Positions 44,437 to 60,685 of a stretch of DNA of 64,000 nt are shown here, in pieces. Source of the DNA: Pseudarthrobacter defluvii. GTDB lineage: Bacteria > Actinomycetota > Actinomycetes > Actinomycetales > Micrococcaceae. Both the position numbers and the translations under genes were made by a program. The notes under the pieces were generated by a model. That model was given only the letters and a program-made list of their open reading frames with translations, had not been told where the DNA came from and did not search any database. The stretch is taken from positions 4,216,001 to 4,280,000 of the forward strand of contig NZ_JAUSYG010000001.1 in assembly GCF_030816725.1 (NCBI RefSeq), read 5' to 3'. The first letter of the stretch is position 1, and every line of letters starts with the position of its first letter.

Positions 44437-44466
44437 AACACCCTTGCATCAGCCCAACAGCGTCCC

Positions 44467-44492
44467 CATAATAAATGAATGGCATTCATTTA
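44467..44492 (+). promoter_or_regulatory. Leaderless promoter overlapped by a TetR-type operator
   Basis: -10 CATAAT (44467-44472), then six bases to ATG 44479. Palindromic arms TAAATGAATG and CATTCATTTA around one central base span 44472-44492, covering the transcription start and the first codons. The same arms recur at 59837-59857 beside the tetR gene. Confidence 0.8.
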
Positions 44493-45582
44493 CACGACCG
44501 CAGGCAGGGGCAGCGCCGCCCCCGGCAACGCACACATCGGCACCCAGGCCCACATGCCCGCAGAGTGGGAAGCACACCAGCGCACCTGGATGGCCTTCCC
44601 GCCGCCCAACCACACCTTCGGCCCCGTCGGAAGCTCCACCCTGGACAGGGCGCGGACCGCCTGGACCAGAGTTGCCCGGACCATCGCCCGGCACGAACCC
44701 GTCACCGTCATCGCCGACCCCCGCGACGCCACGGCCGCGCGGGAATGGCTTGGCAGCGGCATCGACGTGGTGGAGGTGCCCCTCGACGACGCCTGGCTGC
44801 GGGACAGCGGCCCCACGTTCGTCCATGCGGCGGACGGGTCGCTGGCCGCAGTCGACTGGACCTTCAACGGCTGGGGCGCACAGGAGTGGGCTGCCTGGGG
44901 CAAGGACCAGGAGGTGGCGCGCACCGTGGCAGCAGGGGTGGACGTTCCGGTACGGCCGTCAGCCCTGGTGAATGAGGGCGGCGGGTTCCATGTGGACGGC
45001 GAAGGCACCGTGCTGCTGACCGAAACAGTCCAGCTTGATCCCGGGCGCAACCCCGGCGCCACCAAGGAATGGGTGGAGGCGGAAATCCACGCAGTCCTGG
45101 GCACCACCAAGGCCATCTGGATTACGCGCGGACTGACCCGGGACTACGACGAATTCGGCACCCGCGGCCACGTGGACATCGTGGCCGCCTTCGCCGGCCC
45201 GGGCACCATCCTGCTGCACCGCCAGGACGATCCCGCCCACCCGGACCACGCTGTGTACCTGCAACTGAGGGCAGTCCTTGCCGGCCAACTGGACGCCCGG
45301 GACCGCCCGCTGCGCATCATTGACGTTCCCGCTCCCACTACGCTCAAGGACGACGAAGGCTGGGTTGACTGGTCCTACATCAACCACTACGTCGCAAACG
45401 ATGTGGTGGTCCTCTGCAGCTTTGACGACCCCAACGACAGCATCGCGGCCGGCATCCTGGAACGCGCCTACCCCGGCCGTACGGTGGAGCTCGTGGACGC
45501 CCGGGACATCTTCGCCTTCGGCGGCGGCATCCACTGCATCACGCAGCAGCAGCCCGCCACGCGGAAATGCGAAGCGGCATGA
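44479..45582 (+). CDS. Agmatine deiminase-family protein
   Basis: 367 residues of the peptidyl-arginine/agmatine deiminase fold: MPAEWEAHQRTWMAFPP, LRDSGPTF (catalytic Asp), GGGFHVDG, RGHVDIVAAF (catalytic His) and nucleophile C353 in GGGIHCITQQQP. The known reaction is agmatine to N-carbamoylputrescine plus ammonia. ATG 44479 is chosen because a -10 lies six bases ahead; the alternative ATG 44554 has no ribosome site. It overlaps the amidase gene (ATGA). The TetR-type operator over its start links it to the amine oxidase at 58.4 kb. Confidence 0.9.
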   Translation: MAFIYTTAGRGSAAPGNAHIGTQAHMPAEWEAHQRTWMAFPPPNHTFGPVGSSTLDRARTAWTRVARTIARHEPVTVIADPRDATAAREWLGSGIDVVEVPLDDAWLRDSGPTFVHAADGSLAAVDWTFNGWGAQEWAAWGKDQEVARTVAAGVDVPVRPSALVNEGGGFHVDGEGTVLLTETVQLDPGRNPGATKEWVEAEIHAVLGTTKAIWITRGLTRDYDEFGTRGHVDIVAAFAGPGTILLHRQDDPAHPDHAVYLQLRAVLAGQLDARDRPLRIIDVPAPTTLKDDEGWVDWSYINHYVANDVVVLCSFDDPNDSIAAGILERAYPGRTVELVDARDIFAFGGGIHCITQQQPATRKCEAA

Positions 45583-47351
45583 AACTCGTGGAGCACGCCC
45601 CTGAACGGCGCACCGCGATAACGTTCGACGTGGTGGAGGCCGGCATCAGCCAACTGCGGGGTGCCCTCGAGGCCGGCGATGTGACCAGCGAGCAACTGGT
45701 CCGCCTCTACCTGAAGCGCATCGAGAAGTATGACTCCTCGGGCATATGCCTGAACTCCTTGGTCGTGATGAACCCGGACGCCATTGCCGAGGCGCAGGCG
45801 TCGGACCGCCGCCGCGCCGCCGGATACACGCTCGGCCCCTTGGACGGCATCCCGTACACGGCGAAGGACAGCTATCAGGTCAAGGGCCTCACCGTCGCTG
45901 CCGGCTCTCCTGCCTTCAAGGACCTCGTGGCGCAGCGGGACGCCTTCACCATCGAACGCCTCCGTGCCGGAGGTGCGGTCCTGATCGGCCTGACCAACAT
46001 GCCGCCCATGGCCAACGGAGGTATGCAGCGCGGGGTATATGGCAGGGCAGAGAGTCCCTACAATGCAGGCTTCCTCACAGCGGCGTTCGCTTCAGGCTCG
46101 TCCAACGGCTCGGGGACGGCAACCGCCGCCAGTTTTGCTGCCTTTGGCCTGGCGGAGGAAACCTGGTCCTCCGGCCGCGCGCCGGCGTCGAACAATGCCC
46201 TCTGCGCCTACACACCCTCGCGCGGCGTCATTTCAGTCCGCGGCAACTGGCCCCTGGTCCCCACGATGGACGTGGTAGTTCCGCACACCCGCACGATGGC
46301 CGATCTGCTGGAAATCCTGGACGCCGTGGTAGCCGACGACCCGCAAACACGCGGCGACTTCTGGCGGGTCCAGCCCTGGGTCCCGGTGCCCAAGACATCC
46401 GCTGTCCGCCCGCCGTCGTACATCGCCCTGGGCGTTACGGACTCAGCCGCCGCGGCAGGCGTCCTTGCGGGCAAGCGGCTGGGCGTTCCCCGGATGTACG
46501 TCAACGCCGACCCCGAGGCCGGATCAGCGGAGGCACCCGGCATCGGCGGTCCCACCGGACAACGGATTGAAACGCGCGAATCCATCCTGGAACTGTGGGC
46601 GGCGGCCCGCCGCGACCTGGAAGCAGCCGGCGCCGAGGTGGTGGAGGTGGACTTCCCCGTGGTGTCCAACTACGAAGGCGACCGCCCCGGCGCACCCACC
46701 ATCGCCACCCGCGGCCTGGTGTCCCCGGAGTACCTGCGCCGGGAAATCGTGGACCTCTCCGTCTGGGCATGGAACGACTTCCTCGACGCCAACGGGGACC
46801 CGCAGCTGAACCGCCTTGCCAACGTGGACGGTTCCGCCATCTTCCCCGCCCCGGAAGGTGCGCTGCCGGACCGCTACGACGGGTTCGATGACCACATTGG
46901 GGACTATCCCGCCTGGATCCGGGAGCACGGCGTTCCCGTCCTGGCCGACATCCCGCACCTGCCCGACGGCCTGGCAGGGCTCGAGGAAACCCGCCGGGTG
47001 GACCTGGAAGAGTGGATGGACCGGTTGGGCCTGGACGCTGTGGTGTTCCCGGCGGCCGCCGACGTAGCCCCTGCAGACGCCGACACGAATGAACGCTCGG
47101 CGGACCTCGCCTGGCGCAACGGCGTGTGGGTAGCCAACGGAAACCTGGTCCCCCGGCATCTTGGCATCCCCACGGTCACGGTCCCCATGGGCATGGCAGC
47201 AGACATCGCCATGCCGGTGGGCCTCACGATCGCGGGCAAGGCCTACAGCGACACGGAACTGCTCCGGTTGGCGGCAGCGTTCGAAGCGACCGGCCGCCGG
47301 CGCGTATCACCACCACGCACCACCCCCGGAGGACATGCACAAAGCGACTGA
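45579..47351 (+). CDS. Amidase-signature-family hydrolase
   Basis: 590 residues, longer than most family members (450-500). Catalytic triad regions: Lys in PYTAKDSY, cis-Ser in SGSSNGSG, and the nucleophile Ser in TWSSGRAPA, which aligns with the canonical TGGSIRIPA, so the triad seems intact though the sequence is unusual. Its start overlaps the agmatine deiminase stop, so it probably acts on the deiminase product, perhaps hydrolysing N-carbamoylputrescine, a step normally done by a nitrilase-type enzyme. That role is inference. Confidence 0.88.
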   Translation: MKLVEHAPERRTAITFDVVEAGISQLRGALEAGDVTSEQLVRLYLKRIEKYDSSGICLNSLVVMNPDAIAEAQASDRRRAAGYTLGPLDGIPYTAKDSYQVKGLTVAAGSPAFKDLVAQRDAFTIERLRAGGAVLIGLTNMPPMANGGMQRGVYGRAESPYNAGFLTAAFASGSSNGSGTATAASFAAFGLAEETWSSGRAPASNNALCAYTPSRGVISVRGNWPLVPTMDVVVPHTRTMADLLEILDAVVADDPQTRGDFWRVQPWVPVPKTSAVRPPSYIALGVTDSAAAAGVLAGKRLGVPRMYVNADPEAGSAEAPGIGGPTGQRIETRESILELWAAARRDLEAAGAEVVEVDFPVVSNYEGDRPGAPTIATRGLVSPEYLRREIVDLSVWAWNDFLDANGDPQLNRLANVDGSAIFPAPEGALPDRYDGFDDHIGDYPAWIREHGVPVLADIPHLPDGLAGLEETRRVDLEEWMDRLGLDAVVFPAAADVAPADADTNERSADLAWRNGVWVANGNLVPRHLGIPTVTVPMGMAADIAMPVGLTIAGKAYSDTELLRLAAAFEATGRRRVSPPRTTPGGHAQSD

Positions 47352-58391: not shown

Positions 58392-58411
58392 ATTAGTAAG
58401 CAGCTTATTTA
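58392..58411 (-). promoter_or_regulatory. TAGTAAGC-type site before the stress-26-like gene
   Basis: TTAGTAAGC-A-GCTTATTTA-like inverted repeat, overlapping the stop codon of the amine oxidase gene. Confidence 0.5.
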
Positions 58412-59800
58412 CCAGCCGGCCGGCACCGGGACCTTCGCCAGCTCGGCGATGCGCGCCGCCGTCAGGCGCCCCATGCGGATGGCCCCGTCGACGTGCTGGT
58501 AGCCTTCCGCTGCCAGGTCCGAGGAGGACCAGTAGATGGGGCCGACAGGAGCATGCTGGTCCTTGCCGTAGCGATGGAGACCGCCCAGGTCATAGCTGGC
58601 CGCGTATGCGCCGCGGGTCCATTCCTCCGAGCCCCAGTCGGACTCGTAATAGACCTCGGGGCTGAGGGCCTCGGCGCCCAGGTAGCCGGCGATGGATTCC
58701 AGGATCGCCTTCCTGCGGTCCTCGGCACTGAGCTCGAACATGGCGTCAGCTTTCTCATCGGACACGAAGCCCACCAGCGTGCCACGGGGATCCCCGTGGT
58801 TCGTGTTGTCGTACACCTCCTGGACCAGGGCGTCCGCGCCGAAGCAGGTGCCGGACAGTCCCTTGTCCCGCCAGAAGGGGGTGCCGTAGACGGCATGGAC
58901 CTTGATGACCAGGCCCAGGGACTGGTGCTGGTGCATCTGGTGCTGGCGCCGGGGCAGGGGCGGATTGAAGGAGACACGGGAGTAGAGGTTGGGCGGCACG
59001 GCCATGATCACGAACCGGGCGGTGACGGTGGCACGATCGGATACGACGCTCACGCGGTGGCCGCCATCCGCGTCCGGCTCCCAGTTGATGGTGCGCACCG
59101 GGGAGTTGAGGACGACGTCGTCCCCCAGCTCGCGTGCCTGCAGCAGTGACACCTGCTGCATCCCGCCCACCACGCGTCGGTCAAGGATGAAGTCCTCATC
59201 TGTCAGATGAGTGAATGAGCCAGCTGAGGCCGCCATCAGGACGGCCTGCAGGGCCGAGAAGGCGTGCGCCGGCTTGGTGAGCATGCCGCCGGCGATGAAG
59301 AGGCCGATGTTCTTGCAGGCTTCCTCATTGTCGCAGTTCTGCCGGAGCCAGTGGTGGAAGGAAATGGTGTCCAGCTCGCGTGCCTTGGGGTGGGCCCAGG
59401 GCTCGGTGGGGCCGAGCTCGGCGGCCAGCCCGTCCAGGAGGGCCACCAGACGGTCCATCTCGACGGCGGTATCCGAGTCTACCGGAAAGGTGTCGCCGGT
59501 GTAGCGCACCGGGGCGCCGTCGGCACCTATGTAGATGGACTCGCCTTCACGGTAGCGCGGGTAGGTCTCCAGGTTCAGTTCGTCAAGCAGCTCCAGGAGG
59601 GCAGTCTGATCCGGCGAGACCCACTGGCCGCCGATTTCGAGCATGGCGCCGTCCACGGTGTCGGTCCAGGTCCTGCCGCCCACACGGTCTCGGGCCTCAA
59701 GCACGGCCACGGTGAGGCCGGCCTTCTTCAGTTCACGGGCGGCGGTGAGTCCGGACGGCCCGGCTCCAACGACCACGACGTCGCGGTTCAGGTTCAGCAT
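58409..59800 (-). CDS. Flavin amine oxidase (putrescine-oxidase-like)
   Basis: 463 residues from ATG 59800 (GAGAGGAC upstream). N-terminal FAD fold VVVVGAGPSGLTAARELKKAGLTVAVLEARDRVGGRTWT, substrate region GGQWVSPDQTALLELLDEL and C-terminal AAEGYQHVDGAIRMGRLTAARI. Length and layout fit actinobacterial putrescine, tyramine or MAO-type oxidases, which convert primary amines to aldehydes, ammonia and hydrogen peroxide. A tetR gene is divergent, with a 25-bp palindrome between them; that palindrome recurs at agmatine deiminase, supporting putrescine as substrate. Confidence 0.88.
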   Translation of the reverse strand: MLNLNRDVVVVGAGPSGLTAARELKKAGLTVAVLEARDRVGGRTWTDTVDGAMLEIGGQWVSPDQTALLELLDELNLETYPRYREGESIYIGADGAPVRYTGDTFPVDSDTAVEMDRLVALLDGLAAELGPTEPWAHPKARELDTISFHHWLRQNCDNEEACKNIGLFIAGGMLTKPAHAFSALQAVLMAASAGSFTHLTDEDFILDRRVVGGMQQVSLLQARELGDDVVLNSPVRTINWEPDADGGHRVSVVSDRATVTARFVIMAVPPNLYSRVSFNPPLPRRQHQMHQHQSLGLVIKVHAVYGTPFWRDKGLSGTCFGADALVQEVYDNTNHGDPRGTLVGFVSDEKADAMFELSAEDRRKAILESIAGYLGAEALSPEVYYESDWGSEEWTRGAYAASYDLGGLHRYGKDQHAPVGPIYWSSSDLAAEGYQHVDGAIRMGRLTAARIAELAKVPVPAGW

Positions 59801-59834
59801 GATGTCCTCTCTGCGGTCCCTGGTGATCGGAACC

Positions 59835-59859
59835 AATAAATGAATGTCATTCATTTATT
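59835..59859. promoter_or_regulatory. TetR-type operator of the amine oxidase/tetR gap
   Basis: Perfect 12-base arms AATAAATGAATG and CATTCATTTATT around one base. The inner 21 bp equal the site over the agmatine deiminase start except for the central base. Confidence 0.9.
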
Positions 59860-59935
59860 TGAACTATAGCTGCTGCCTGGCGGGAGCGGAAGTACCGGAT
59901 GGAATAATGCAGGGGACACCGACGAAAGGGCAGGA

Positions 59936-60685
59936 ATGCCGGCAGTATCAGCCGCACAGGGACGCTCCACCCACAATGGCGGCGGGCAGAAGAGGCGGGC
60001 CGGCCGGCCGTCTGCGGCAGTGCTGGACAAGTCCGGGATCACGGCGGCTGCGCTGGAACTGGTCAGCCGGAAGGGCTACGACGGGTTGACGATGGCGGCC
60101 CTGGCCAAGGAACTCGATGTGGCACCCTCCGCGCTTTACAACCACGTGGCGTCAAAGCAGGATGTATTGCTCCTGGTGGAGGACCACCTGATGTCTTTGG
60201 TGGATGTTTCCGGTTTCAGCGGCGGCAGCTGGGAGGACGCCGTGCGCGCTTGGGCCTGGAGCTACCGGAACGTTTTTGCCGAGCACACTCCGCTGATTCC
60301 GGTCATCGCGGTCCTGCCGGTTACGGACGCGCCGCAGACCCTGGCGATGTACGAGACCGTCAGCAAGGGATTCTCCGACGCCGGGTTTCCACAGGAACGC
60401 ATTGTGCCGGCCATCGTGGCACTTGAGTCCTTTATCTTCGGGTCCGCGTATGACGTCACCGCCCCGGAGGACATCTTCGACTCCGGAAGCATGGCTGAGT
60501 CCACTCCGTATTTCACTGCCGCCGTCCGCAGTGCCTCCACGGGGCCTGATGCGCCTGCAGCGAGCGGCGGCGCGGGAGGCCAGGGCGGCCAGGAGCGCGG
60601 CCGCCCGGCAGACACCGCCTTCCACCTTGGGCTGGACGCCCTGGTCTCCGGACTGGGTGCACTGCGGACGGGGCAGCCGGGCTAG
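59936..60685 (+). CDS. TetR-family regulator, probable polyamine regulator
   Basis: 249 residues: a disordered basic head, [37 protein letters not shown], then an all-helical ligand domain with a Gly/Ala-rich insertion near the C-terminus ([19 protein letters not shown]). Divergent from the amine oxidase with a perfect 25-bp palindrome in the gap, so autoregulation and repression of the oxidase are likely. It converges with rlmN, overlapping by 4 bp. Confidence 0.9.

What the first reader, a model, noticed from the sequence alone, without database searches (positions are those of the whole stretch)
58409..60685. A split polyamine regulon: amine oxidase, TetR and the distant agmatine deiminase/amidase operon
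The 25-bp palindrome at 59835-59859 matches the site at 44472-44492 in every base but the centre. Agmatine deiminase (agmatine to N-carbamoylputrescine), an amidase (possible decarbamoylation) and a putrescine-type oxidase form one logical route to aminobutanal under one repressor, though the loci are 15 kb apart. The amidase would be a non-nitrilase replacement for N-carbamoylputrescine amidase.
Basis: partly seen in the sequence, partly recalled or inferred. Interest (0 to 1): 0.78.

Follow-up and report, generated by a model that had tools for sequence, protein, structure and literature searches.

The report
TetR regulon for agmatine and putrescine
In a soil Arthrobacter-type bacterium, one repressor gene appears to control, through copies of one DNA switch at separate places on the chromosome, the enzymes and an uptake protein for breaking down the amines agmatine and putrescine; the enzymes are of known kinds, the shared switch is a new prediction.

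Summary
The palindrome AATGAATGNCATTCATT occurs exactly twice in the 4.58-Mb genome: upstream of an agmatine deiminase/amidase operon and between putrescine oxidase and a divergent tetR gene. A third, slightly weaker site outside the window precedes an amino-acid-type permease. Comparison supports one regulon: in 61 family genomes the relaxed motif gives 38 sites, 36 beside genes of this pathway or its likely relatives, against 2 hits for the reversed control; sites occur in 28 of 37 genomes with the TetR orthologue and 1 of 24 others. In some relatives oxidase, deiminase and amidase lie in a row behind one site. The amidase idea is right but published: it is AguY, the non-nitrilase N-carbamoylputrescine amidohydrolase (Li et al. 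2025). Limits: the operator goes with one deiminase lineage only (site in 13-16 of 19 such AguY loci, 1 of 41 with other deiminases). Within the genus the operator often drives a nitrilase-type AguB operon instead; none of 14 such genomes carries AguY. So: known enzymes, a familiar sort of repressor, a newly recognised shared regulon with a swappable second step. Binding, inducer and activities are inferred.

The parts
58409..59800 (-). puo, putrescine oxidase (flavin amine oxidase), start at ATG 59800
   Evidence: Pfam Amino_oxidase 257 bits; 887 bits to PDB 3rha putrescine oxidase, 729 to 2yg3; Glu328 (aligned with Glu324 of 2yg3) kept in all 34 sequences compared, the own one included
59835..59859 (.). 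operator 1, perfect 25-bp palindrome between puo and tetR
   Evidence: conserved at tetR/puo junctions of relatives
59863..59868 (-). probable -10 of puo (TATAGT); the -35 is weak
   Evidence: upstream sequences of near relatives; read by eye, not measured
59936..60685 (+). tetR-family repressor gene, divergent from puo
   Evidence: Pfam TetR_N 44.5 bits, TetR_C_1 39.5 bits; S65, Y68, N69, H70 in the probable recognition helix kept in all 38 sequences compared, the own one included
44444..44472 (+). probable aguA promoter: TTGCAT, 17 bp, CATAAT; operator begins at the end of the -10
   Evidence: 16 aguA upstream regions, the window's included, compared by eye
44472..44492 (.). operator 2, 21-bp palindrome upstream of aguA
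   Evidence: conserved upstream of window-type aguA in relatives
44554..45582 (+). aguA, agmatine deiminase-type (start at 44554, or 44479 inside the operator)
   Evidence: Pfam PAD_porph 347 bits; aligns along its length with Arabidopsis agmatine deiminase 3h7c; below the NCBIfam equivalog cut-off (274.7 vs 381.8 bits)
45579..47351 (+). aguY, amidase-signature N-carbamoylputrescine amidohydrolase; overlaps the aguA stop by 4 bases
   Evidence: NCBIfam NF005127 1042 bits, cut-off 575; two family members assayed in PMC12283126; K96, S174/S175 and S198 invariant in 80 of 80 relatives

Best explanation
A local TetR-type repressor, encoded beside puo, binds the inverted repeat TAAATGAA-N5-TTCATTTA just downstream of the -10 element of at least three promoters: puo, aguA-aguY, and a distant APC-type permease gene (3517035 in the genome; probably two tandem sites). 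Without substrate it blocks initiation at all three. When agmatine or putrescine enters, an amine (most likely putrescine, since puo is the commonest target) releases the repressor. The permease then brings in substrate; AguA turns agmatine into N-carbamoylputrescine, AguY hydrolyses that to putrescine, and PuO oxidises putrescine to 4-aminobutanal plus H2O2, which goes on to GABA. Shown here: the sites, their number, gene neighbours, conservation and co-occurrence with the TetR. Inferred: binding, repression, inducer, transport substrate and the activities in this organism.
For: Exactly two perfect sites in 4.58 Mb, both here, plus a one-mismatch site at a permease with a weaker copy 54 bp upstream. 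In 61 family genomes (own included): 38 exact AATGAA-N5-TTCATT sites, reversed control 2; 36 of 38 lie beside tetR/puo (23), puo alone (3), aguA of either type (4), aguB (2), permease (1) or an aldehyde dehydrogenase with (2) or without (1) tetR. In the genus 100 of 101 genomes have a site, control 0. TetR orthologue (E<1e-45) and site co-occur: 28 of 37 versus 1 of 24, Fisher p = 2.7e-8. Relatives bring the parts together: operator-puo-aguA-aguY in a row (L103); tetR/puo then permease, aguA, aguY (L040, L045, L083, with sites of 1, 1 and 2 mismatches in the 15-bp core); operator-permease-aguA-aguY (L057); operator-aguB-aguA-permease (L104, L105). Operators follow the -10 in the aguA, aguB and G000-type permease promoters compared. 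The own genome has one PF04371 gene and, among its five hits to the AguB model, none more than 31% identical to the genus AguB, so AguY is the only good candidate for the second step.
Against: No binding or expression data. Of 80 AguY loci from named genomes only 14 have a site with at most one, 18 with at most two mismatches; the site goes with the window-type AguA (13 of 19 at <=1, 16 of 19 at <=2) and is nearly absent with other AguA types (1 of 41), so AguA-AguY as such is not always in this regulon. The AguA falls below the NCBIfam cut-off, as does the AguA of the aguB operon (287). Two ureohydrolase-family genes exist in the genome, so an agmatinase route is not excluded. The statistics ignore shared ancestry. 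Three aldehyde dehydrogenase neighbours match the reference only at 32-47%, so their link to polyamines is weak. The tandem copy at 3516981 is one of four two-mismatch places in the genome, the control giving one. Permease promoters L057 and L102 do not show the TTGC/CATAMT boxes. 2 of 38 family and 7 of 70 genus sites had no expected neighbour in the automatic test.
Confidence: 0.83

Rival explanations
1. Two regulators share one recognition sequence: the tetR beside puo controls only puo, and a paralogous TetR (TetR2-like) elsewhere in the genome controls aguAY and the permease.
For: A sister TetR (29-32% identical) sits in the same locus as aguA-aguY in several relatives (L023, L032, L034, L038, L040, L073; beside aguB-aguA in L175); a similar operator-like sequence stands in L136.
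Against: Only one TetR reaches E<=1e-20 in this genome (TetR2 might score below that); no other tetR is next to aguA here; the site tracks the PuO-linked TetR; G031 has puo-aguA-aguY in a row behind one site.
Confidence: 0.11
2. The TetR is an activator or responds to something other than polyamines (for example oxidative stress from H2O2), and the shared targets are incidental.
For: The target oxidase makes H2O2; TetR proteins can sense varied ligands (recalled).
Against: Operators lie just 3' of the -10 at aguA, aguB, puo and G000-type permease promoters compared by eye, a repressing position; most targets are polyamine breakdown or permease genes.
Confidence: 0.07
3. The amidase works on another substrate (its relative Tse8, a secreted antibacterial effector of Pseudomonas, is thought no longer to serve polyamine metabolism), so the agmatine route is incomplete here.
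For: 20 of 80 AguY relatives have no AguA gene in the fetched locus, some of these loci being cut short by contig ends, so some members may act elsewhere.
Against: This one overlaps aguA, and the actinobacterial AguY of Microterricola was assayed with kcat/Km of about 642,000 per M per s (PMC12283126); Lys and Ser residues of the amidase signature are invariant; no close AguB was found.
Confidence: 0.04

Closest known systems
AguA-AguY pathway (Li et al. 2025, PMC12283126; parts 1-3 of 5 read, plus a term search)
   Same: Same enzyme pair, adjacent, also in an actinobacterium; AguY is a non-nitrilase N-carbamoylputrescine amidohydrolase
   Different: The main text has no mention of TetR, and its two mentions of an oxidase concern PdxH; the link to putrescine oxidase and permease through one operator is not in it
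AguR-aguBA of Pseudomonas aeruginosa (PMC4287709, passages read)
   Same: TetR-family repressor of agmatine deiminase genes, released by agmatine
   Different: AguR is reported for the aguBA operon, bound between -35 and -10; here the tetR sits with puo, several separate loci carry the site, and it lies after the -10
Putrescine oxidase pathway of Rhodococcus and Arthrobacter (PDB 2yg3, 3rha; Rue61a genome paper PMC3534580, passages read)
   Same: PuO to 4-aminobutanal to GABA; growth of an Arthrobacter on agmatine and putrescine reported
   Different: No shared regulation in the passages read; the agmatine route was marked incomplete there and AguB assumed
PuuR and CgmR (PMC9951944, passages read)
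   Same: Regulators that respond to putrescine or diamines; CgmR is TetR-family
   Different: Other systems: the Puu gamma-glutamylation route of E. coli and putrescine transport in Corynebacterium

Membership tests
AguY (NF005127 / PRK06565) | score over curated cut-off | tested here: met
   1042 vs 575 bits
AguY (NF005127 / PRK06565) | gene next to aguA | tested here: met
   aguA and aguY ORFs overlap by 4 bases
AguY (NF005127 / PRK06565) | amidase-signature Lys and two Ser kept (residue roles recalled) | tested here: met
   K96, S174/S175, S198 in 80 of 80
AguY (NF005127 / PRK06565) | hydrolyses N-carbamoylputrescine | not testable with these tools
   needs enzyme assay; shown for two relatives in PMC12283126
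AguA agmatine deiminase | PAD_porph domain along the whole protein | tested here: met
   347 bits, profile 1-321 of 321
AguA agmatine deiminase | NCBIfam TIGR03380 equivalog cut-off | tested here: not met
   274.7 vs 381.8 bits; called agmatine deiminase-type by context, not by this model
AguA agmatine deiminase | catalytic-region motifs (RDSGPTF, HVDGEGT, GH.D, HCITQQQP) | tested here: met
   alignment with 3h7c; motif roles recalled
Putrescine oxidase | close sequence match to a solved putrescine oxidase | tested here: met
   887 bits to 3rha, 729 to 2yg3
Putrescine oxidase | diamine-binding Glu324 of Rhodococcus PuO (role recalled) | tested here: met
   Glu328 aligned, kept in 34 of 34 sequences
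Putrescine oxidase | oxidises putrescine | not testable with these tools
   needs assay
TetR-family repressor | TetR_N helix-turn-helix | tested here: met
   44.5 bits, cut-off 24
TetR-family repressor | binds the palindrome | not testable with these tools
   co-occurrence only
AguB (TIGR03381) in the own genome | score over cut-off | tested here: not met
   best 107 vs 410 bits; the relatives' AguB itself scores only 174, so identity is the better test: own nitrilases 26-31% against 63-77% for AguB of relatives

The most novel reading that the evidence does not exclude
Within one operator-defined regulon of this family, the N-carbamoylputrescine step has been exchanged between two unrelated enzymes, the nitrilase AguB and the amidase AguY, while TetR, operator, oxidase and permease stayed. 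This genome carries the scar: operator and permease remain at the place where a same-genus relative has aguB-aguA-permease, the enzymes are not there, and aguA-aguY sits under another copy of the operator 15 kb from tetR.
Probability: 0.55. Interest if true: 0.5.

Novelty: new member of a known kind. Interest (0 to 1): 0.42.

Why it matters
It turns scattered annotations (amine oxidase, TetR, amidase, permease) into one testable catabolic regulon whose operator is present in 100 of 101 sampled genomes of the genus. It could give a putrescine or agmatine sensor for actinobacteria, places the recently found AguY in a catabolic setting, and offers a natural example of one enzyme replacing another under a constant regulator. 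It could also explain why an Arthrobacter grows on agmatine although its route was marked incomplete (PMC3534580; not checked whether that strain has aguY).

Tried and rejected
Chance palindrome: rejected (control). ORF starts inside the palindrome: for puo rejected in favour of 59800; for aguA left open, since the frame is open through the operator in 15 of 16 aguA upstream regions compared but broken by a stop in L027, and conservation there partly reflects the operator itself.

Fourth own-genome match at 209386 (3 mismatches): its neighbours, judged by eye from ORF starts only (L101), look unrelated; dropped. Of the two-mismatch places, 2029959 seemed to lie among overlapping ORFs and was not pursued; 2339812 and 3541465 were not examined. 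Family sites in G009 C11 (L165) and G033 (L170) have no polyamine neighbour and are counted as misses; genus sites L205 and L235 look like chance. Genus sites L193, L195, L225, L239, L256 were unassigned by the automatic step; L225 and L239 lie beside AA_permease genes, L256 reads alike, L195 precedes a transporter-like ORF without a Pfam hit on the piece tested, L193 stayed unclear.

Plasmid search for AguY gave 13 records and added nothing. Arginine decarboxylase was tested with one model only (TIGR01273, no hit over cut-off); other folds were not tested. No structure prediction was run: it would not have decided the question.

Literature: the listings showed no description of this regulon; that covers open PMC papers only. 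Foster et al. 2013 on the putrescine oxidase pathway and Nakada et al. 2001 on aguBA are not held, so they may contain part of it. Passages only were seen of PMC3534580, PMC9951944, PMC8112011, PMC4287709 and PMC9397018.

Full report
Observation. The two sites are as described. Site 1 (59835-59859) is a perfect 25-bp palindrome between a minus-strand amine oxidase gene and a plus-strand tetR gene. Site 2 (44472-44492) shares its central 21 bp except for the centre base. The window contains no other match to AATGAATGNCATTCATT with up to three mismatches, and shuffles expect 0.02. The genome, one contig of 4,580,739 bp, has exactly these two perfect copies.

A third target. With the repeat AAATGAA-N5-TTCATTT and up to two mismatches the genome gives seven places and the reversed control one. 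After the two window sites the best is 3517035-3517053 (one mismatch); one of the four two-mismatch places lies 54 bp upstream of it, at 3516981. Both precede a gene for an APC-type permease (PF13520, 93 bits). In two relatives the aguB promoter also has two exact operators 53-55 bp apart (L222, L250).

The proteins. The oxidase matches PDB 3rha (putrescine oxidase) with 887 bits and 2yg3 with 729, and Glu328, aligned with Glu324 of the Rhodococcus enzyme (role recalled), is kept in 34 of 34 sequences, the own one included. The deiminase is a full-length PAD_porph protein aligned with Arabidopsis agmatine deiminase but scores below NCBI's equivalog cut-off (274.7 vs 381.8 bits); the deiminase of a related aguB operon also does (287). 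The amidase scores 1042 bits against NF005127 (cut-off 575) and 876 bits against the PDB entry of Tse8. Li et al. 2025 (PMC12283126; parts 1-3 of 5 read, and a term search) showed that Shewanella and Microterricola relatives, named AguY, convert N-carbamoylputrescine to putrescine and that the type VI effector Tse8 descends from AguY. That the window protein belongs with AguY rests on this relationship and on its place beside aguA; I did not align it with the assayed proteins themselves. The genome has a single PF04371 gene and no AguB over cut-off (best 107 vs 410 bits). As the AguB of relatives scores only 174, identity is the better test: the own nitrilases are 26-31% identical to the genus AguB, AguB of other relatives 63-77%.

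One regulon, comparative evidence. In a sample of 61 genomes of the family, own included, the exact repeat AATGAA-N5-TTCATT occurs 38 times in 29 genomes; the reversed control occurs twice. By an automatic neighbour test 23 sites lie between tetR and puo, 3 upstream of puo alone, 2 of aguA of the window type, 2 of aguB, 2 of a second aguA type, 1 of a permease, 2 between tetR and an aldehyde dehydrogenase, 1 upstream of an aldehyde dehydrogenase, and 2 near nothing relevant: 36 of 38. The aldehyde dehydrogenases match the reference only at 32-47%, so those three are weak. The TetR orthologue (E<1e-45) is in 37 of the 61 genomes; one more genome, G004, has a match at 1e-31 and was counted as without. 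Sites occur in 28 of these 37 and in 1 of 24 others, Fisher p = 2.7e-8 (relatedness ignored). The one exception, G033, has flanks that extend the repeat poorly (L170). Of the nine TetR genomes without an exact site, six have one with at most two changes in the 15-bp core at the tetR/puo junction (G003, G005, G008, G010, G014, G056), two have poorer ones (G040, G042) and one has none (G035).

In the genus sample 100 of 101 genomes have a site and none has a control hit. The listing was cut; I classified 70 sites in 68 loci, not counting G000 and G009: 63 of 70 fell beside the query genes (32 tetR/puo, 15 aguB, 9 aguA, 2 second-type aguA, 5 permease) and 7 did not; of these seven, two lie beside AA_permease genes by Pfam, one reads alike, two are unclear and two look like chance. 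In the order, 14 of 248 genomes have the longer repeat: 13 of 19 in the same family and 1 of 229 outside it, and that one again lies between tetR and puo homologues. Diverged operators outside the family were not sought.

Relatives also show the genes together: operator-puo-aguA-aguY in a row in G031 (L103); tetR/puo followed by permease, aguA and aguY in Arthrobacter cheniae (L040), a Kocuria MAG (L045) and Nocardiopsis coralli (L083), with one, one and two mismatches in the core; operator-permease-aguA-aguY in an Arthrobacter (L057); and an aminobutyraldehyde dehydrogenase (703 bits, cut-off 615) a few genes from a site in G058 (L106).

A limit. Of the 80 AguY loci, 14 have a site with at most one mismatch and 18 with at most two. 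Split by deiminase: with a window-type AguA (at least 60% identical) 13 of 19 have a site at <=1 and 16 of 19 at <=2 mismatches; with other AguA types 1 of 41. Loci reach only 7 kb, so distant sites would be missed. The operator thus belongs to one AguA-AguY lineage, not to the enzyme pair as such.

Architecture. In the aguA, aguB and G000-type permease promoters compared by eye a TTGCNN box, about 17 bp, and a CATAMT-like box precede the operator in nearly all, and the operator starts at the end of the -10; permease promoters L057 and L102 lack these boxes. For puo a TATAGT-like box lies some 8-10 bp before the operator in near relatives. This position suits repression. The TetR residues S65, Y68, N69 and H70 of the probable recognition helix are invariant in 38 of 38 sequences, own included, which are down to about 40% identical. 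The half-sites AATGAA/TTCATT were the search pattern; the next positions outward, not all fixed by it, are also nearly constant (A in 69 of 72 half-sites).

Enzyme exchange. In G009 and G018 an operator drives nitrilase-aguA-permease (L104, L105; the L105 genes by similarity); G009's lies at the same place as the own permease operator (same neighbouring genes). In the own genome the operator is followed directly by the permease; that the enzymes were lost rather than never there is inference. AguY is in 49 of 101 genus genomes at E<=1e-150; the 14 genomes in which I saw AguB beside an operator include none of them (hypergeometric 3.4e-5, relatedness ignored). AguB was scored only where a site was listed and fetched, so this is a partial census. 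Of four further genus genomes in which a permease is the first recognised gene after the operator (G091, G110, G124, G138), three carry AguY, but no operator beside that AguY was seen among the listed sites, so it may lie outside the regulon.

Mechanism and what is inferred. I propose repression by TetR at all three places and induction by putrescine, since puo is the commonest target. The inducer could instead be agmatine, as for AguR of Pseudomonas (PMC4287709, passages). The absence of an arginine decarboxylase over cut-off by one model suits breakdown of outside agmatine, but other decarboxylase folds were not tested, and two ureohydrolase-family genes leave an agmatinase route open.

Verdict. 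Enzymes and regulator type are known; the shared operator, its third target and the AguB/AguY exchange under it were not found described in the open papers searched (listings). Interest is moderate.

Noticed in passing
L020-L099, esp. L041, L059, L074, L082: 20 of 80 close AguY relatives (Streptomyces, Kitasatospora, Brevibacterium, mycobacteria, Pseudomonas and others) have no aguA gene within the fetched locus, some loci being short, although the AguY paper describes the homologues in its tree, Tse8 apart, as adjacent to aguA. TetR-like ORFs stand beside several of them, judged by eye.
   Followed up: partly
L020-L099: Two or more AguA lineages pair with AguY; only the window-type one goes with the operator.
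   Followed up: partly
L225, L239, L256: In a few genus members the operator lies between an AA_permease gene and an amidohydrolase gene (Amidohydro_3 by Pfam in L239), perhaps a further branch of the regulon.
   Followed up: partly
L022, L034, L106: YtcJ-like Amidohydro_3 genes (Pfam in L022 and L106) sit with aguA-aguY or directly behind the operator in relatives; their substrate is unknown.
   Followed up: no
L175, L136, L040: A sister TetR (TetR2) lies by agu/puo genes in some relatives, with a related operator-like sequence TAAACGAACGCAATTCGTTTA in G004.
   Followed up: no
44467-44492: In the aguA promoter the predicted start of transcription falls on an in-frame ATG inside the operator (44479), so a leaderless message is possible; the frame is open in 15 of 16 compared regions.
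   Followed up: partly
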